From Lachnospiraceae bacterium (GTDB taxonomy: Bacteria > Bacillota > Clostridia > Lachnospirales > Lachnospiraceae), in contig JAGHER010000211.1 in NCBI GenBank assembly GCA_017889125.1, positions 1 to 44,896 of the forward strand: a stretch of DNA of 44,896 nucleotides, given 5' to 3'. This document shows positions 32,219 to 42,216 of this stretch, one piece after another (the first letter of the stretch is position 1; each line of letters begins with the position of its first letter). The notes below the pieces were generated by a model. It searched no databases, had not been told where the DNA came from, and saw only the letters and a list, made by a program, of their open reading frames with translations. The position numbers were made by a program, and so were the translations under genes.

Positions 32219-32869
32219 CTACCAATCTATAACATCAAAAAATTCTTCCAGGTTACTGCCTCTATTGATTAACGCTCCCATATCAAGAATCGTTTCTTTA
32301 ATTTCAATATCAAAAGATTTTTTTCTAATAACATATATATTTTTTACAAGCTTTAAACTGCCTCGAATTTTTTCAAGCATGACCGGATATCCATTATTTC
32401 CACTGTTCAGGAAAGAATATATATCCTCTTTTGCCTTAAACTGCTCTATACTTTTAAATCCCAGCTGTCTGGTGATAAATGCATTGGTATTCTGCCCTTT
32501 ATACTCTGCAATGTGAAGGCATGAAACGTACTCAAAATCCGGATTATTTACAATTAAAAAATGAGGTACAGCTCTTTTTTGGTTCTGTAAGCGGCAATAA
32601 TCCAGCAACGAACGAAAAGCTTTTTCTTCTCCAGAATTACTACTTATTCGATCTGCATCGACAATTACAAATTTGGCAATGCAATTCGTCTGTGCTTTTG
32701 TACGGATTTCATTTAAAAAATTCGTATATCCGCCGCCCTTCATATTAATCGGCTGCAATGAAATCTCAACCCCCTGCCATTTCCGCATATGGTCAATATA
32801 ATGAAATTCCGTGTCCCCTTCACAAAATACTACAAACTTCTTTTTTAATTCCCGTTTTAATCTACTCAT
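32219..32869 (-). CDS. rloB: RloB family protein (probable AbiL/RloAB defence nuclease subunit)
   Basis: A 216-residue protein starting KKKFVVFCEGDTEFHYIDHM, the RloB motif, with the acidic strand KFVIVDADRISSN and a conserved FLIVNNPDFEYVSCLHI core. RloB is a TOPRIM-like domain protein found beside AAA ATPases in restriction and abortive-infection loci (RloAB, AbiL). It is probably the effector nuclease, though its activity here is inferred. The start is at 32869 (GGAGG 8 nt upstream), overlapping the ATPase stop by 8 bp, so the two genes are coupled. Codon use and base composition are clearly more AT-rich than in the flanking genes. Confidence 0.85.
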   Translation of the reverse strand: MSRLKRELKKKFVVFCEGDTEFHYIDHMRKWQGVEISLQPINMKGGGYTNFLNEIRTKAQTNCIAKFVIVDADRISSNSGEEKAFRSLLDYCRLQNQKRAVPHFLIVNNPDFEYVSCLHIAEYKGQNTNAFITRQLGFKSIEQFKAKEDIYSFLNSGNNGYPVMLEKIRGSLKLVKNIYVIRKKSFDIEIKETILDMGALINRGSNLEEFFDVIDW

Positions 32870-34037
32870 CAGCCGTACCTCCAAGGATTCCTTTCATATA
32901 GAACTCATAGATTTTTGTTGTTTCGTACCGAACCTCAGGGAAATCCGAAAGTGCATAAAGCTCAGAAATCAATGACTGTCGGCTCTTGCTAATGAAATAA
33001 ATCTGTTCCTTCATAAACGTAATTAAATTCAGGTGCAGAACATTATGTGTGGAAAAAACAAACTGTCCATGATGCTGCTTGCCATTAATATAGGCAATTA
33101 CCCGATCCGATAATATCGGATTTAAAACACGGTCCATCTCATCTGCGAAAATCACCTTATTCTCGTATACCACTCTGAAAATTTGAACTGCCCACGCAAA
33201 AAACTCACGCACGCCGGAAGAATCCAGGGACAGCTCTCTCTTCAGGATAACTCCCTCCCTGTTTTTTCGAAGAATAATTGTTTTGCTGTATGGTTTTTCT
33301 TCATCTAATTCAATACCACAGATGCTGTAATCGACCATTCGAAAAATATCCAGATATCTGGCATCTTTCAGAATTTCCAAATCACTTTGCAGCTTTTTTA
33401 TCCCACCATCGCCATCCGCATGGAAAGATTCCGTATACAGGCAATCATTCATCCATTTCGTCACCACCAGCGCATGCTCATTTCCCAAAATAGCCAGCTT
33501 AGTAATAAACAGACCAATTCCAGGATTGCTTTTTTCCAAAATACTGCTGATCAAAGATGCTGTTGTTCCAGAAACTGTATATCTATTCTCATGATTTTTT
33601 TTGATAGAAAAGCAGAGGCACTCTTTACTCTTTTTTGTTTTCCGATATCCCAGCTGCTCCTCCTGAATTCCCCCACGATTAATAACCAAATAGTATCGAT
33701 AAATTATTCCCGATTCATCCAATATTTCCAATTCAAATTTCTGATCTGGATCAATATTTTTCTCTAAACTGGCTAAATTTACGTACGCCGGAAAGGATCT
33801 TACCTCTCCATTATCCGCAAAAAATGACTTTAAATAGTTGAGGCTATTAATGAAATTTGATTTTCCTCCTGCATTTTCACCAACAATAACTGCCGATTTT
33901 AGAAGACTGCATCCATTATCCCATTCCACAAAATTATCTGGAAATCTTCGCCTGACCTTGCCAACCGCCGTTTCCATAGAAAATTCATTGTCTCCCCAAA
34001 AAGAACAGTAATTATTAAAATAATAACGAATTAACAT
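32862..34037 (-). CDS. AAA family ATPase, AbiLi/RloA-like
   Basis: A 391-residue OLD/SMC-like ATPase. Walker A reads VGENAGGKSNFINSL, preceded by the family-typical NYCSFWGDNEFSM strand. A signature-like segment (SLDSSGVREFFAW), Walker B VIFADEMDRVLNP and a switch-like FSTHNVLHLN follow. Such ATPases sense infection and license their partner in AbiL/RloAB-type phage defence. The start is taken as ATG at 34037 (GGGGG 7 nt upstream) rather than GTG 6 bp earlier. First gene of a two-gene, AT-rich island between an ABC operon and an AraC gene, consistent with horizontal acquisition. Confidence 0.82.
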   Translation of the reverse strand: MLIRYYFNNYCSFWGDNEFSMETAVGKVRRRFPDNFVEWDNGCSLLKSAVIVGENAGGKSNFINSLNYLKSFFADNGEVRSFPAYVNLASLEKNIDPDQKFELEILDESGIIYRYYLVINRGGIQEEQLGYRKTKKSKECLCFSIKKNHENRYTVSGTTASLISSILEKSNPGIGLFITKLAILGNEHALVVTKWMNDCLYTESFHADGDGGIKKLQSDLEILKDARYLDIFRMVDYSICGIELDEEKPYSKTIILRKNREGVILKRELSLDSSGVREFFAWAVQIFRVVYENKVIFADEMDRVLNPILSDRVIAYINGKQHHGQFVFSTHNVLHLNLITFMKEQIYFISKSRQSLISELYALSDFPEVRYETTKIYEFYMKGILGGTADE

Positions 34038-34043
34038 ATGCAC

Positions 34044-36205: not shown

Positions 36206-37069
36206 TCACGCCTCCCCACCCCGCATCTCCGCCGCCCTCCTCGCCTGGGAGGGCGTGCATCCATAAATGGATTTAAAGGTGCGGTTAAATAATTTCTGAT
36301 TGGTGAATCCATGCCCCGACGCAATCTCCGCGATGGGCAGATCCGTCTGTACCAAATCCGAATAAATATGCGATACGCGAATCTCATTAACATATTGAAG
36401 GAAAGTCATTCCCATATTCTTCTTAAACAATCGGCAGAAATACTCCTCCCCCACATTCAAAAGCTCCGCTCCGTCCTCCGGAGAAAGAGGCTCCTGATAA
36501 TGCTCCTCCACAAAAGAAATCACCTGCTTAAGCCTCTCCCTTGTGCGGCCGCCCGACAATGCCGCCTCCTCCGGCAGAATCGGCACCGAAAAGTGCTCCA
36601 CCAGCCTGGCAAAAATCTGCAGAATCATCCCCTCCGCCTCCAGAGAAAAGGTCATTCCCCCCTTCACATAAAGCCGCGTCAAATCCTCCAGCATCCCGCA
36701 GATATACAGATATGGCTCAAACTGTTCATCCGGAATGGCATCCGGCAGACAGCGGATCTCGCGGGTATCTAACTCCGGCAGATACGCCGCCAGCTTTTCC
36801 CTGGAAAGGTGAATGCGCAGGAACATGGAGCGGGTATCATAGGTGTAGGTACTGTGCAGCCGCCGTGCCTCAATGACCAGCAGATGCTTCTTCATCAGCA
36901 CATGCTTTTCCCCGTCAATGACAATATCGGTATTCCCGTTTAAGGGGAACATAAGCTCCACCTCATTGTGCCAGTGCAGGGGCCGGTACCCTCCAGGCAC
37001 CGTACGCCAGGCATAGGATATGCCCAAAGGGCTTGTATTTAAAAGAGTTTCGTAAAATGCCTCCGCCAT
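36206..37069 (-). CDS. AraC family regulator with cupin sensor (second)
   Basis: A 287-residue regulator with an N-terminal cupin (YRPLHWHNEVELMFPLNG, VLMKKHLLVIEARR) and a C-terminal double HTH (LSPEDGAELLNVGEEYFCRL, then IAEIASGHGFTNQKLFNRTF). The start is taken at 37069 with GAGG upstream rather than 37090. It is divergent from a 47-codon gene whose promoter has direct repeats of the kind AraC proteins bind, so that gene is its likely target. The ligand is unknown. Confidence 0.9.
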   Translation of the reverse strand: MAEAFYETLLNTSPLGISYAWRTVPGGYRPLHWHNEVELMFPLNGNTDIVIDGEKHVLMKKHLLVIEARRLHSTYTYDTRSMFLRIHLSREKLAAYLPELDTREIRCLPDAIPDEQFEPYLYICGMLEDLTRLYVKGGMTFSLEAEGMILQIFARLVEHFSVPILPEEAALSGGRTRERLKQVISFVEEHYQEPLSPEDGAELLNVGEEYFCRLFKKNMGMTFLQYVNEIRVSHIYSDLVQTDLPIAEIASGHGFTNQKLFNRTFKSIYGCTPSQARRAAEMRGGEA

Positions 37070-37150
37070 AAAATCCTCGTCTCCTCTCATTCCATTTCGA
37101 TTTCAAATCTGGAAACTTTTAGAATGATCATAGAAAAAAATCGCGAAAAT

Positions 37151-37214
37151 GTCAATATCGACGTAAAAGAAGTCAATATTGTATCTGGAATCCTCCTGAA
37201 AAAACCGTTATGAT
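37151..37214 (+). promoter_or_regulatory. AraC-like direct repeats and promoter of the 47-codon gene
   Basis: GTCAATATCG (from 37151) and GTCAATATTG (from 37172) are direct repeats exactly 21 bp apart, two helical turns. The second ends about 5 bp before a weak -35 (TGGAAT, 37186-37191), which is 17 bp from TATGAT (37209-37214). A weak -35 next to a tandem site fits an activator-dependent AraC-type promoter. Confidence 0.6.
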
Positions 37215-37280
37215 AAGAGCGTATCAAGGAAACAGGGATACATCCTGAACATGAAGCATGTTAAGAAAGGAGAACACACC

Positions 37281-37424
37281 ATGAGCAAGATCGTTTTAAA
37301 GATAAAGAATTACTTTTCTGAGAATAAGGAGGCCTTCATCCTGGGTATGTTGGGCCTGAATGAGAACATTTCTCCCGAGAGCATCCGGGCAGAGGTTGAA
37401 AACGTAAACGTATTTTCCAAGTAA
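37281..37424 (+). CDS. 47-residue small protein of unknown function
   Basis: Not in the ORF track because of its length. ATG at 37281 has AAGAAAGGAG 8 nt upstream, and TAA is at 37422-37424. The product begins with a basic amphipathic stretch (MSKIVLKIKNYF), continues with FILGMLGLNENIS and ends in an acidic tail (RAEVENVNVFSK). It has no Cys, signal peptide or known motif. It is flanked by its own AraC-like promoter and a perfect 10-bp terminator, so it is a self-contained transcription unit and very probably real. It could be a small regulatory or secreted peptide; I do not recognise a family. Confidence 0.65.
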   Translation: MSKIVLKIKNYFSENKEAFILGMLGLNENISPESIRAEVENVNVFSK

Positions 37425-37446
37425 TCACAAACGATAGTGAGCATAG

Positions 37447-37477
37447 GAGCATAGCCGGTTTTGGCTATGCTCTTTTT
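37447..37477 (+). terminator. Terminator after the 47-codon gene
   Basis: GAGCATAGCC (37447-37456) and GGCTATGCTC (37463-37472) form a perfect 10-bp stem with a 6-nt loop, followed by TTTTT. It sits just before the convergent kinase gene's stop. Confidence 0.92.
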
Positions 37478-37490
37478 GCTGTCTGCCGCT

Positions 37491-38864
37491 TTATTTTTTT
37501 CCGTGCTGAAAAAGAGCAATGCGCACCTTAAGACCATGAGGAGTCATTTCCTCAAATATCAATCTCCCTCCATGGGCCTGCACAATCTGCCTCACAATTT
37601 TCAAGCCCAATCCATGCTCCGGCTTCCCCAATCCGCCCTTCGGCGCAACATCCTGCCTTCCGCCATTCAGCCTGGCTAAAAAGGCAGCATCTATTCCTTT
37701 TCCATCATCCCATACTTCAAAGATACATTGGCTATTCTCCGCCTTCACCTTTATCCCGATATGACAGCCCTCAGGATTGTGAACCACACTGTTGATCAGC
37801 AGGTTGTCAATCATCCGCCTAAGAAGTGCCGGGTCACCCTCCAGCCATACTGCCTTCCCAGGCGGCTCCTGGGAAAATTCAAACACATATCTTTCTGGCA
37901 GGCCCTGATTAAGAAGCTCGCTCACAGCCTTTCGCCCAAGTTCCGCACCATCCACCTGCTCCCGGCAGACTGGCTGGAGAGCATATTCCAGTTTAGTGGT
38001 CAGATTCAGGCTTTCCACCAGGCCCTTTAACCGCTCTCCCTGGCGGCGGATGACCACCGCCTGTTTTCGTGCATCCGGCGGCAGGGCGGAATTCTCTTCC
38101 AGCTCACTGGCATAGCCCAGCACCATAGACAGCGGTGTGCGGATATCGTGGGACACTCCCCGGATCCACTCCGCCCGGGTATTGTCCTTTTTGGCCAGGT
38201 ATTCTCCTGCCTGATTAAGCCCGTGGCTGATTTCCGCCAGCTCCCCCCGCTCCTTTAAGGGACGCGGCCTGCCTGCGGCCAGATCCTGAATTCCCTGAAG
38301 GATCGGCGACATAGCCTTTTCCACCCTTCGGGCATTTCGGAGGGTCAGAAAAATCAAAAGCCCGATGTTCGCCAGAAATATCAGGCATCCCCCCAGCAAA
38401 ACAAGGAAAAAATAATCCCTGTCCACAGAAAAATAATATTTTACCCAGGTTTCAGGTGGAAATCCCACCACGGCAAGGAATCCATCCTCCCGCGCCCAGA
38501 CTTTCACCGGATAATCTTCAAGATACCAGCGGCTGAAGGAGGCCACATCCGCCGCCGAGTACCAGCGCGGCAGCTCCTCCGGCAGCTCCTGTTCCCAGAC
38601 TACCTGCCCGCCTTCATCAAGAACCATTGCCCAGGCATCCGTTTCCTGCAGCATGGTCAAAGCCTCTTCATCTCCAATCCACGCATCCCCCTCCCGGACG
38701 ATATGCGCTGAAAATGCGCGAATGGAAAAAGCAGCATACCGATCATATCCATAACCAGCAGTAAAGACACCGAGAATCAGCAGCACATTGACCGTCAAAA
38801 ATAAGATCACACTTCCCGTCACAGAAACAATATAGCGGCGAAAAAAGCGCCGCACCGGCTTCAT
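37491..38864 (-). CDS. Lantibiotic/antimicrobial-peptide-type sensor histidine kinase
   Basis: A 457-residue kinase. TM1 lies near residues 14-38 and TM2 near 153-175; between them is a roughly 110-residue external domain (LPRWYSAADVASFSRWYLED) like those of CprK/NisK-type lantibiotic sensors. HAMP follows, then HisKA with RGVSHDIRTPLSMVLGYASE and HATPase with DNLLINSVVHNP, DDGKGID and HGLGLKIVRQ. Its start overlaps the response regulator stop as ATGA. With the divergent ABC genes it makes a complete sensing-resistance module. Confidence 0.9.
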   Translation of the reverse strand: MKPVRRFFRRYIVSVTGSVILFLTVNVLLILGVFTAGYGYDRYAAFSIRAFSAHIVREGDAWIGDEEALTMLQETDAWAMVLDEGGQVVWEQELPEELPRWYSAADVASFSRWYLEDYPVKVWAREDGFLAVVGFPPETWVKYYFSVDRDYFFLVLLGGCLIFLANIGLLIFLTLRNARRVEKAMSPILQGIQDLAAGRPRPLKERGELAEISHGLNQAGEYLAKKDNTRAEWIRGVSHDIRTPLSMVLGYASELEENSALPPDARKQAVVIRRQGERLKGLVESLNLTTKLEYALQPVCREQVDGAELGRKAVSELLNQGLPERYVFEFSQEPPGKAVWLEGDPALLRRMIDNLLINSVVHNPEGCHIGIKVKAENSQCIFEVWDDGKGIDAAFLARLNGGRQDVAPKGGLGKPEHGLGLKIVRQIVQAHGGRLIFEEMTPHGLKVRIALFQHGKK

Positions 38865-39556
38865 CGCTCTGCCCCCTTTAAAATCAACCGATACCCCAGC
38901 CCCTTTGCCGTGATCAGCGAAATCGGCCGTGACGGGTTTTCCTCAATCTTTTCCCGCAGATGCCGGATATGAGTAGACAAGGTGCTCTCATATCCCTGCC
39001 AGAATTCCCCGCAGACAGTCTCACACAAAATGCCGGTGGTGACAATTCTCCCGGCATTTTCATAAAGCTTTTCAAAAAGCTGCAGTTCCCTGGCCGTCAG
39101 CGGGATCTGCTGTCCATTTTTCTGCACCTGGGCTTTTTCCAGATCCACCGTGGATGCCGCAAGCTCCACCCTTCCCCCTTTCCCCGGACAGGTTCGCTGA
39201 AGGATAGCCCTCACACGCAAAAGCAGCTCCCGGGGAAGAAATGGCTTTCCCAGGTAATCATCTGCACCAAGCTCCAGCCCGGCTATCCGATCCTCTCCTT
39301 CTCCCCGGGCAGTAAGCATCAGCACAGGAACACGGCTTTCTTTGCGTATCTCTTTAAGCACCGCAAAGCCATCCATTCCCGGCATCATCACATCCAGGAC
39401 AATCAGGTCCGGCGCCTGCTCCTTCCAGATTTGCAGCACCTCTTCGCCCGAGGCGGCCATCAGGATGCGCCCATATCCTCCTCGCCGGAATATCACGCAA
39501 AGCATCTCCAAAAGCTCCGGATCATCATCTGCCAGCAAAATCAATTCATTATACAA
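38861..39556 (-). CDS. OmpR-family response regulator of the lantibiotic module
   Basis: A 231-residue regulator with a receiver (LILLADDDPELLEML, LIVLDVMMPGMDGFAV, MLTARGEGEDR, GKPFLPRELL) and a winged helix (LTARELQLFEKLYE, YESTLSTHIRHLREKIEEN). It starts at TTG 39556 with GGAGG 8 nt upstream. It probably binds the four 11-bp direct repeats in the divergent promoter region. Confidence 0.92.
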   Translation of the reverse strand: MYNELILLADDDPELLEMLCVIFRRGGYGRILMAASGEEVLQIWKEQAPDLIVLDVMMPGMDGFAVLKEIRKESRVPVLMLTARGEGEDRIAGLELGADDYLGKPFLPRELLLRVRAILQRTCPGKGGRVELAASTVDLEKAQVQKNGQQIPLTARELQLFEKLYENAGRIVTTGILCETVCGEFWQGYESTLSTHIRHLREKIEENPSRPISLITAKGLGYRLILKGAER

Positions 39557-39588
39557 GGCATTTTCCTCCTTAATCTCCGCTGCTCACC

Positions 39589-39617
39589 ATTATACTGCGG
39601 AAAAAGGCGCCTGCCTA
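39589..39617 (-). promoter_or_regulatory. Promoter of the kinase/regulator operon
   Basis: TAGGCA (39612-39617) and TATAAT (39589-39594) on the minus strand are 17 bp apart, about 30 bp before the TTG start of the regulator gene. It is back to back with the ABC promoter. Confidence 0.5.
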
Positions 39618-39630
39618 TTCCCTCCGGCAA

Positions 39631-39687
39631 ATCTCAGCGTTAAATCAAGGTCAGCTCAGAGTTATCTCAAAGTACAGGTGGTATCCT
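39631..39687 (+). promoter_or_regulatory. Four 11-bp direct repeats and promoter of the lantibiotic ABC genes
   Basis: ATCTCAGCGTT, AAATCAAGGTC, AGCTCAGAGTT and ATCTCAAAGTA follow one another without gaps (39631-39674), consensus A-CTCA--GTT. The last two overlap the -35 position of a weak promoter whose -10 is TATCCT (39682-39687). Tandem 11-bp repeats over -35 are the classic layout for OmpR-family activation. Confidence 0.65.
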
Positions 39688-39718
39688 CCTGTCATCAACA
39701 AAAGGAGGTATCCCACTT

Positions 39719-40642
39719 ATGAGCAGCTATATCATCGAAACCCATGGTCTGACCCGCCGGTACGGCGATCAGGTCAGTGTCTCCAATCTGAATCTCCACG
39801 TACAGAAGGGCCGCATATACGGCCTTCTTGGCCGAAACGGCGCAGGAAAAACCACTACCATGCGAATGCTCCTGGGTCTGACCGCCCCCACATCCGGTAC
39901 GATTCAGCTCTTTGGCCATCCCTTCAAAGGCCCGCAGAAAGAAAGCCTCTCCCGCATCGGCAGTCTGATCGAATCGCCGGGCTTTTATCCCAATCTGACC
40001 GGCATCGAAAATCTGAACATCTTTGCCCGCCTGCGCGGACTCAAAGACTCCCGCTGGATTAAGCAGGCACTGGAACTGGTAAATCTTCCATACAGCGACA
40101 AAAAGCTTTATGCTCACTACTCTCTGGGCATGAAGCAGCGCCTGGCCATTGCCCTGGCTATCATGCATGACCCGGAGCTTCTGATTCTGGATGAACCCGT
40201 CAATGGCCTTGATCCCATCGGCATCGCCCAGGTTCGGACTTTCATCCGCACACTGTGCCATGAAAAAAGGAAGACCATTTTAATTTCCAGCCACATTCTT
40301 TCCGAAATTTCCCTGCTTGCAGACGATATCGGCATCATCGATCATGGTATTTTGCTGGAAGAAGAAAGTCTGGCAAATCTGGAAAAGAAAAATACCCGTT
40401 ACCTTCGCATTACCGTATCCAATGCCCCGGCCGCCGCCCTTCTCCTTGAGGATAAGCTGAATGCTCAGGCGCTGTCCATAATCGATGGCCACACATTGAC
40501 CACAGAGGATCCCCGGCTGGATACCGGCGAAGCGGTACGCCTTATGGTGGAGGCAGGACTGACAGTGCAGGATGTGCATCTCTATGAAGACACACTGGAG
40601 GATTATTTCAAAAAAATCACAGGAGGTGAGGGCATTGCTTAA
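39719..40642 (+). CDS. Lantibiotic-protection ABC ATPase (BcrA/LanF type)
   Basis: A 307-residue ATPase: Walker A GLLGRNGAGKTTTMRM, signature YSLGMKQRLAIALAIM, Walker B LLILDEPVNGLDPIG and H-loop SSHILSEIS. The C-terminal accessory domain (residues about 215-305) is as in BcrA/NisF/CprA proteins. With the two permeases it would expel or displace antimicrobial peptides such as lantibiotics from the membrane. RBS AAAGGAGG. Divergent from the two-component operon; its stop overlaps the first permease by 8 bp. Confidence 0.92.
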   Translation: MSSYIIETHGLTRRYGDQVSVSNLNLHVQKGRIYGLLGRNGAGKTTTMRMLLGLTAPTSGTIQLFGHPFKGPQKESLSRIGSLIESPGFYPNLTGIENLNIFARLRGLKDSRWIKQALELVNLPYSDKKLYAHYSLGMKQRLAIALAIMHDPELLILDEPVNGLDPIGIAQVRTFIRTLCHEKRKTILISSHILSEISLLADDIGIIDHGILLEEESLANLEKKNTRYLRITVSNAPAAALLLEDKLNAQALSIIDGHTLTTEDPRLDTGEAVRLMVEAGLTVQDVHLYEDTLEDYFKKITGGEGIA

Positions 40643-41432
40643 GCTTCTTTGCTGTGAACTGGCCAAGCTGCGGCGCAGGCCTCTCTTCTTTGCCGCAGCG
40701 GCATCCTCTGGGCTGATTCCCCTGGGCTGCGCACTGTTTCTGCCAGAATTTCATACATTTTCCAGCGGTGCAGAGGCAGTGGACAGCATGATGTCTGCTC
40801 TCTTTCAGATGAGCGCCTGCCTGCTCTTGATGCCAGCCCTTGTGGTGCTGGCCTCCAGCCTCTTTTTTACCGAACATGATCAGGACACACTGAAAAATAT
40901 TCTGACCATACCGGTATCAAAGCCAGCCCTTGCTATGGCAAAGCTTATTCTTCTGCTGCTGTTTGCCATTGCCTTCATGGCCGCCGGAGGTCTGATTAAT
41001 CTGGGAATCCTCCTGGCATCCGGATGGACGCCGGATGGCTTTGGACGGCTGTTTCTGGTTGGTCTTGGCCTGGGTATCCTGATATGGGCCGGAGCGCTGC
41101 CCTGCATCCTGCTGGCGGCAGCCCTCAGCCGCAGCTACATTATCTCGGTGATTACCGCCTTTTTCTATACCGCGGTCAACTATATCCTAAGCATGAATGA
41201 CCATTTCCTCACCCAGCCCTTCGGGCTGAATGCAGGAACGCTTTTCCCTGGCCCTATGGCTTTCCGCTGGTATTATCAATATCTGGATCTTACCAGTCCT
41301 CAGCTGACCGGGCTTCTGGAACGAATCGGCCCCTATTTTCTAAACACTGCCCAGACCTTCCTGGCCGCCGGAGCAGAGGCTGCTGTCTTTTTGCTCCTGA
41401 TTGCCCTGGTCTTTCAGAATCAAGATACCTAA
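40635..41432 (+). CDS. Lantibiotic ABC permease (LanE type)
   Basis: A 265-residue membrane protein with about six helices of the ABC-2 class (FFAAAASSGLIPLGCALFLP; ILTIPVSKPALAMAKLILLL). The start is taken as TTG at 40635, with AGGAGGT 7 nt upstream inside the ATPase gene; the track start at 40572 is in the ATPase coding region. It pairs with the next gene. Confidence 0.87.
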   Translation: MLKLLCCELAKLRRRPLFFAAAASSGLIPLGCALFLPEFHTFSSGAEAVDSMMSALFQMSACLLLMPALVVLASSLFFTEHDQDTLKNILTIPVSKPALAMAKLILLLLFAIAFMAAGGLINLGILLASGWTPDGFGRLFLVGLGLGILIWAGALPCILLAAALSRSYIISVITAFFYTAVNYILSMNDHFLTQPFGLNAGTLFPGPMAFRWYYQYLDLTSPQLTGLLERIGPYFLNTAQTFLAAGAEAAVFLLLIALVFQNQDT

Positions 41433-41445
41433 GGAGTGAAGAATC

Positions 41446-42216
41446 ATGTGGAATATACTAAGATGCGAATGGCTGAAGCTGCACCGCTGCCAGATTCTGC
41501 TTGTGGGAATTACCGCCATGATCCTCTGCCCGGTAACCCAGTACGGCACCCAGCTGGTAATAAACCCGGAAATGCGGGATTCCAGCTATGACCTTGCCCA
41601 ACTCTTTGCCAATGTCATCTGGGGCAATACCCAGATCTTTCTGCCCATTTCTCTGGTCATGACCGGCGGATGGCTTATTGACCGGGAAAATACCAATGAC
41701 ACCATGAAAAATAACCTTGCCATCCCTGTGCCCTACCGCCGTCTTCTTACCGGCAAGCTGATCATGACTATCCTGCTGGCACTGATCTTTGGTCTGTGCA
41801 GCGGGATGATAACCCTGCTCACCGGAATAGCTGCCGGCCTTTCCTTTCCATCACCGCCAGTTGCAGCCCTTCTCTGGGCACAGACCACAGCAGCCGCGAT
41901 GACCACCTGCCTGGTGTGCATGCCCATGATCCTGTTTTTCGGCCAGCTGCGGGGCGCCTACCTAAGCGGTTCCCTGCTGGCCTTTTTTCTGGGCTACTGC
42001 ATCCTGTTTTTTAAGAGCGGCCCTCTGCTCTCCGCCTATCCCTTTTCAGCCGCACTGATCCTTGCAGGTTTTGATATGGAAGAATTTAACGGGGCAGCCC
42101 AGCCCCCCAGCATCCCTCTGGCCCTGGCCGGAATGACGGCAGTGCTGGCTTTAACCGCCCTTATTCTCCTTTTATCCTGCCCCGTGGAACGAAATCCCAG
42201 AAAACAAACTTTCTAG
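41446..42216 (+). CDS. Lantibiotic ABC permease (LanG type)
   Basis: A 256-residue membrane protein with six helices and the pattern shared with the previous permease (LRCEWLKLHRCQILLVGITA; MKNNLAIPVPYRRLLTGKLI). Two distinct permeases with one ATPase is the FEG arrangement. RBS AAGGAG, 7 nt before ATG. It ends the operon; no clear terminator follows. Confidence 0.87.
   Translation: MWNILRCEWLKLHRCQILLVGITAMILCPVTQYGTQLVINPEMRDSSYDLAQLFANVIWGNTQIFLPISLVMTGGWLIDRENTNDTMKNNLAIPVPYRRLLTGKLIMTILLALIFGLCSGMITLLTGIAAGLSFPSPPVAALLWAQTTAAAMTTCLVCMPMILFFGQLRGAYLSGSLLAFFLGYCILFFKSGPLLSAYPFSAALILAGFDMEEFNGAAQPPSIPLALAGMTAVLALTALILLLSCPVERNPRKQTF

What the first reader, a model, noticed from the sequence alone, without database searches (positions are those of the whole stretch)
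37151..37477. Unlisted 47-codon gene under AraC-like control
A small gene too short for the ORF track has two 10-bp direct repeats 21 bp apart, a weak-35 promoter, a good RBS and a perfect terminator. The divergent AraC gene is the obvious regulator. The peptide has a basic amphipathic head and acidic tail and no known family. Next to a lantibiotic-type sensor-transporter module, a peptide of this type could be a signal, toxin or regulator, although the link is only proximity.
Basis: partly seen in the sequence, partly recalled or inferred. Interest (0 to 1): 0.62.

Follow-up and report, generated by a model that had tools for sequence, protein, structure and literature searches.

The report
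AraC-controlled orphan small-protein gene module
The overlooked 47-codon gene is very probably real: it belongs to an undescribed family of very small proteins in gut Lachnospiraceae, each apparently switched by its own AraC-type regulator through the same conserved DNA site, so it defines a two-gene regulatory module whose target is still unknown.

Summary
The 47-aa ORF (37281-37424) has an operator of two GTCAATATYG half-sites 21 bp apart, a good RBS and a strong terminator. Direct searches find no homologue of the peptide. Orthologues of the divergent araC in other Lachnospiraceae genera (roughly 36-53% identity) do have a small ORF (28-67 aa) beside them, behind the same operator in the same register (half-sites 21-22 bp apart; -10 box 58-59 bp from the first half-site in 29 of 34 promoters). 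The small proteins are alignable but highly divergent, under purifying selection within subfamilies, sometimes in tandem (up to four), and match no Pfam, NCBIfam or PHROG family. Peptide and araC co-occur (13/20 versus 3/377 genomes). The operator lies mostly in front of such genes, including copies unlinked to araC. Best reading: a dedicated AraC-type activator, perhaps responding to a glycoside or sugar, switches on a small helical cytosolic protein that acts on another protein. ANR-like feedback on AraC is the main rival. The lantibiotic-transporter link and a secreted signal or toxin are not supported. All of this is computational; no expression or binding data were available.

The parts
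37281..37424 (+). small gene, 47 aa, member of an undescribed small-protein family
   Evidence: relatives; shuffle test
37151..37160 (+). distal operator half-site GTCAATATCG; its complement is the -35 box of araC
37172..37181 (+). proximal operator half-site GTCAATATTG
37209..37214 (+). -10 box TATGAT, 58 bp from start of the distal half-site, as in relatives
37266..37272 (+). ribosome-binding site AAAGGAG
37445..37477 (+). intrinsic terminator of the small gene
36206..37090 (-). AraC-family regulator (cupin-like N-terminus with HWHxxxE, C-terminal HTH); likely true start at 37069 (MAEAFYE, as MAEAYYE in relatives)
37127..37155 (-). araC promoter TTGACA-17-TATGAT; its -35 box lies in the distal half-site

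Best explanation
This is a two-gene regulatory module. An AraC-family protein binds two direct half-sites (GTCAATATYGaCyTAAAAnaaGTCAAaAT) just upstream of the -35 region of a divergent small gene and activates it; in the window arrangement it would also cover its own -35 box (autorepression). The product is a 47-aa helical, probably cytosolic protein of an undescribed family. Because the operator is found mostly in front of such small genes, the small protein is the main visible output of the regulator. It most likely works as an effector that binds and adjusts another protein, the way SgrT-type small proteins do. The inducer may be a sugar or glycoside, because more distant AraC cousins with similar promoters drive GH3 beta-glucosidases. 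Shown computationally: gene, conserved operator and register, linkage, purifying selection in subfamilies. Inferred: activation, autorepression, inducer class, cytosolic location, mode of action. My split: real module about 0.95; AraC activates the gene about 0.85; effector on a third protein about 0.45. The confidence below is for the whole statement, with the effector step as its weakest part.
For: Same operator and register in about 30 relatives; small ORF beside orthologous araC genes; unbiased operator search: 15 of 21 sites in 397 genomes precede an intact small ORF and one a decayed one; araC/operator 12 of 20 vs 5 of 377, p 2.6e-14; araC/peptide profile 13 of 20 vs 3 of 377, p 5e-17; peptide genes unlinked to araC keep the operator in G136, G192, G355; both genes damaged in G028; low dN/dS in subfamilies; one full operator in the own genome, other architecture matches at the rate of the reversed control; helical models, pLDDT 80-81; no TM-length stretch; GH3-linked AraC cousins with similar half-sites.
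Against: No expression, binding or phenotype data. The target protein is unknown. AraC could have other targets with sites too degenerate for these searches. The promoter table was built with a loose requirement for a -10-like box and a preference for a second half-site, so the spacing is partly selected. 7 of the 20 araC genomes lack a profile hit; some of these carry the 48-aa or other divergent small ORFs. Inducer class is a guess from distant cousins.
Confidence: 0.5

Rival explanations
1. ANR-like feedback: AraC activates the small gene, and the small helical protein binds AraC and switches it off, limiting the response. It would work like Aar/Rnr of enteric bacteria without being related by sequence.
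For: Same layout: 39-80 aa, three predicted helices, divergent beside AraC activators and activated by them (PMC4038620). Peptide distances correlate with AraC-HTH distances (partial r 0.45), but shared phylogeny alone could give this.
Against: No match to the ANR model NF033650. No other AraC targets visible, so feedback alone would serve no purpose. Tandem copies and unlinked copies are not expected of a simple brake.
Confidence: 0.27
2. Secreted peptide: the C-terminal part is released as a signal, or the peptide is a bacteriocin-like product, under AraC control.
For: Fast divergence, tandem copies, G-G/A/S/N pairs after the core in many members, and one peptide gene upstream of a peptidase-C39 exporter gene in G357.
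Against: No evident signal peptide or TM-length stretch; near-neutral charge in the window member. The window member and several others lack a double-glycine site. In G357 the exporter has its own double-glycine type ORF downstream, and none of the other fetched loci has a C39 exporter.
Confidence: 0.15
3. The transcript acts mainly as a small RNA and the ORF is secondary.
For: Short transcript predicted, with its own terminator.
Against: Frames and residues are kept under purifying selection, with differences concentrated at third positions; the leader shows no significant structure (z -1.5); no Rfam match (this excludes known families only).
Confidence: 0.04

Closest known systems
ANR family (AraC negative regulators: Aar, Rnr; PMC4038620, PMC10148876)
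   Same: Tiny helical proteins encoded beside AraC-family activators, often divergent, and under their control.
   Different: No sequence match to the ANR model; Lachnospiraceae rather than Gram-negative hosts; tandem copies; no wider regulon visible; binding to AraC untested.
SgrR / SgrS-SgrT of enteric bacteria (from general knowledge; not tested here)
   Same: Regulator divergent from a small gene that is its dedicated target and whose small protein adjusts another protein.
   Different: Regulator family, peptide sequence and hosts differ; no base-pairing RNA shown here; target unknown.
Rgg-SHP and PlcR-PapR type regulator-peptide pairs (reviewed in PMC13361665, found, not read in detail)
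   Same: Variable small gene beside its own regulator gene.
   Different: The regulator here is AraC-family; no export signal or exporter; feedback by a mature peptide not shown.
AraC-family regulators of GH3 beta-glucosidases in Lachnospiraceae (L097, L099, L101, L104, L075)
   Same: Related regulator and GTCAATAT-type half-sites; -10 distance 57-58 bp in L101 and L104.
   Different: The target is an enzyme, not a small protein; regulators are only about 31-34% identical to the window's.

Membership tests
AraC/XylS regulators (the divergent gene) | C-terminal double-HTH AraC DNA-binding domain | tested here: met
   HTH_18 E 1.2e-21 and HTH_AraC E 1.2e-16
AraC/XylS regulators (the divergent gene) | Binds direct-repeat half-sites near the target -35 and activates | not testable with these tools
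   Site and spacing are conserved; binding is an experiment
The small-protein family defined here | Shared core of the form YFxxNxxxIxxGxxxxNG, more similar than shuffles | tested here: met
   Window against L088, L096, L079, L077: p 3e-4; profile E 5.6e-10 in the own genome, though the window sequence is itself in that profile
The small-protein family defined here | Operator with half-sites 21-22 bp apart upstream | tested here: met
ANR family | Sequence match to the ANR model NF033650 | tested here: not met
   No match in 28 small proteins at E<=1 nor in the own genome at E<=1
ANR family | 39-80 aa, three predicted helices, gene beside an AraC activator | tested here: met
   47 aa; helices 3-14, 16-26, 32-45; divergent araC
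ANR family | Binds and inhibits its AraC partner | not testable with these tools
   experiment needed
Double-glycine peptides exported by C39 transporters | GG/GA/GS cleavage site after a leader, exporter nearby | tested here: not met
   Window member has LNEN at that place; C39 exporter near one locus only
Any described protein family | Match to Pfam, NCBIfam or PHROG, or to a solved structure | tested here: not met
   None for the window member; only single-member or marginal hits in the family; nothing significant in PDB by sequence or fold

The most novel reading that the evidence does not exclude
A new class of dedicated AraC-small-protein switches spread across gut Lachnospiraceae, in which a regulator line that also drives glycosidases has been re-wired to drive only a fast-evolving small effector protein that retunes a cellular machine, for example a sugar transporter, in response to a dietary glycoside.
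Probability: 0.3. Interest if true: 0.75.

Novelty: new variant of a known kind. Interest (0 to 1): 0.56.

Why it matters
An ORF below normal annotation size and without any direct sequence hit turns out to belong to a family that only synteny and a shared operator reveal. The module gives a concrete handle (inducer screen, araC deletion, tagged peptide) on small-protein regulation in gut Lachnospiraceae, and the operator sequence is a practical probe for finding more members that annotation misses.

Tried and rejected
(1) Direct homologue searches with the peptide in genus, family, order, genome contigs, viral contigs, phages and plasmids: nothing credible (the weak hits L003 and L004 were unrelated frames). 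(2) A shared 22-mer in the 5' leader lies in what reads as an ABC-transporter coding region in G300: chance. (3) Known RNA in the window: none in Rfam. (4) A weak PDB hit to 'NSPr peptide': NSPr is the scaffold peptide of the peptidisc; taken as chance helix likeness, and it weakened with the larger profile. (5) Link to the lantibiotic-type transporter: not conserved. (6) C39 export: one locus only. (7) A second operator-like site in the own genome (C253:8045, L234) has a different core and lies before an esterase-like and a GH1-like ORF; such sites occur at the rate of the reversed control. (8) Mirror-tree of peptide against AraC domains: inconclusive.

Full report
Observation. The ORF at 37281-37424 encodes MSKIVLKIKNYFSENKEAFILGMLGLNENISPESIRAEVENVNVFSK. 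The repeats GTCAATATCG and GTCAATATTG begin 21 bp apart and are the only two matches in the window, with 0.09 expected. A -10 box TATGAT lies 58 bp from the first repeat, with no convincing -35. The RBS is AAAGGAG and the terminator folds at -24.3 kcal/mol, z -6.0. The opposite strand carries an 11/12 sigma-70-type promoter for araC whose -35 box TTGACA overlaps the complement of the distal repeat.

First results looked negative. The peptide has no hit at E<=0.01 in 298 other family genomes, no credible hit in 10 further genomes of its genus or in the order sample, and none confirmed in viral or genome contigs, phages or plasmids. It matches no Pfam or NCBIfam model. Its araC has no close orthologue in the genus (best 34-38% identity), so the module is patchily distributed.

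The araC gene gave the way in. Orthologues at 46-53% identity occur in other genera of the family. Their upstream regions hold small ORFs with RBSs, mostly divergent from araC, behind the same GTCAATAT operator. A scan of genome contigs with an araC alignment added named carriers: Petralouisia muris, Parablautia muri, Blautia hansenii, Fusicatenibacter and Roseburia MAGs. Locus L062 (G273) shares its sequence with L082 (Bacterium C-53); with the names this indicates that the family is Lachnospiraceae (inference).

The small proteins are 28-67 aa and very divergent, but share a core of the form YFxxNxxxIxxGxxxxNG. The window peptide aligns best with L088 (MLNAIKNYFSENIDAICAGFAILNGEDFLPYNK), L079, L096 and L077, each with shuffle p 3e-4; similarity to the 48-aa subfamily (L085) is not significant on its own (p 0.09). 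Within the 42-, 40- and 48-aa subfamilies synonymous change exceeds non-synonymous change several-fold, and differences concentrate at third positions. This was not measurable for the window peptide itself, which has no close relative. Tandem copies: four in L085, three in L063, two in L087; G264 has three operator sites, each in front of a small gene.

Promoters. Anchored on the first half-site, 34 promoters show near-invariant TCAATAT, C at +11, a TTAAAA-like stretch, a second half-site at +21/22, CT at +34/35, and a -10 at +58/59 in 29 of 34. Caveat: the script kept loci with a -10-like hexamer between +48 and +70 and preferred a second half-site near +21, so the spacing is partly selected; the base conservation is much less so.

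Independent tests. The operator pattern was searched in 397 family genomes without reference to araC: 21 sites in 17 genomes, against 3 sites for the reversed pattern. Fifteen precede an intact small ORF (the 70-aa ORF of G198 and the 28-aa ORF of G265 fit the family least well) and one precedes a decayed one (G028). The other five lie in what reads as coding sequence (three), upstream of an unrelated protein (one), or before no ORF but next to another AraC-like gene (G136:C59). Genomes with the araC orthologue (E<=1e-45) have the operator in 12 of 20, others in 5 of 377, p 2.6e-14. A profile of the small protein hits 13 of 20 against 3 of 377, p 5e-17; some sequences in that profile come from these genomes, so this is partly circular, whereas the operator test is less so. 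In G136, G192 and G355 the small gene is not beside the araC orthologue yet keeps the operator. In G028 the start region of the small gene is missing and its araC frame is cut to 113 aa, while same-genus G380 has both intact. In the own genome the full operator occurs once; a looser half-site search found only one other site with a different core, at the rate of the reversed control.

Nature of the protein. AlphaFold2 with the family alignment gives three helices for the window member (mean pLDDT 80) and, for L079, a long helix 19-40 with pLDDT above 90 plus shorter ones. pTM is only 0.46-0.47, so helix packing is uncertain. No fold match is significant. There is no TM-length hydrophobic stretch, and amphipathicity is not above shuffles for the window member. 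This favours a cytosolic protein (inference).

Mechanism. Two half-sites just upstream of a poor -35, with a fixed distance to the -10, is a usual layout for AraC-family activators (established knowledge). The distal half-site also supplies the araC -35 box in the window; 9 of 27 loci have a -10 with at least 5 of 6 matches at suitable spacing, against 9% of shuffles. There the regulator should repress itself when bound. More distant AraC cousins (about 31-34%) with the same half-sites precede GH3 beta-glucosidase-like genes; in L101 and L104 the -10 distance is also 57-58. That makes a glycoside or sugar a reasonable guess for the inducer, no more. Since no other target is visible, the small protein is probably the output itself. 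ANR-like feedback (PMC4038620, PMC10148876) is the closest described analogue in layout, but the sequence test fails and feedback alone would leave the regulator without a purpose. A secreted signal is not excluded but lacks an export signal and a conserved exporter.

Context. Comparing ORFs of at least 100 aa across 32 loci, an araC gene is shared by 31, largely by construction; the next clusters are a MATE-type transporter (6 loci, three of them Fusicatenibacter) and two clusters of 5 loci. The sensor kinase, response regulator and LanFEG-like transporter beside the window gene are therefore most likely a chance neighbour. Literature searches found no description of such a module in the held library; most subscription papers are not covered, and general small-protein catalogues (for example PMC11364881) may hold the sequences without this interpretation.

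Noticed in passing
window 37491-42216: Sensor kinase and response regulator on the minus strand facing an ABC ATPase (TIGR03740 lantibiotic protection, 237 bits, below its 310 cut-off) and two ABC2-type permeases with weak MutE/MutG likeness: a LanFEG-like module. Not conserved beside the small gene elsewhere.
   Followed up: partly
window 32219-34043 (minus strand): Two overlapping genes that read like an AAA ATPase plus a RloB-like partner, resembling RloA/RloB-type candidate defence pairs; judged by eye from the translation, no family search was run.
   Followed up: no
L170 (G231:C49): A second module copy with an intact 57-aa small gene and its operator, but the araC-like frame behind it is broken after about 43 codons.
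   Followed up: partly
L212 (G357:C161): A small-gene family member lies about 430 bp upstream of a peptidase-C39 ABC exporter gene, which is followed by an ORF with a double-glycine type motif.
   Followed up: partly
L207 (G354) and L208 (G126): Family members found by profile without the operator, and without a recognised araC orthologue in the genome at E<=1e-45; their regulation is unexplained.
   Followed up: no
L105, region upstream of the AraC-like gene: Three similar 28-30 aa ORFs (MKNELTTKECLMNALRYYSNTLNYRDLI type) near a GTCAATATT site beside a distant AraC cousin; perhaps another small-protein set.
   Followed up: no
L184 (G136:C59:17030): Operator, -10 box and a terminator-like hairpin without an ORF, divergent from a different AraC-like gene; looks like a decayed module or a non-coding transcript.
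   Followed up: no
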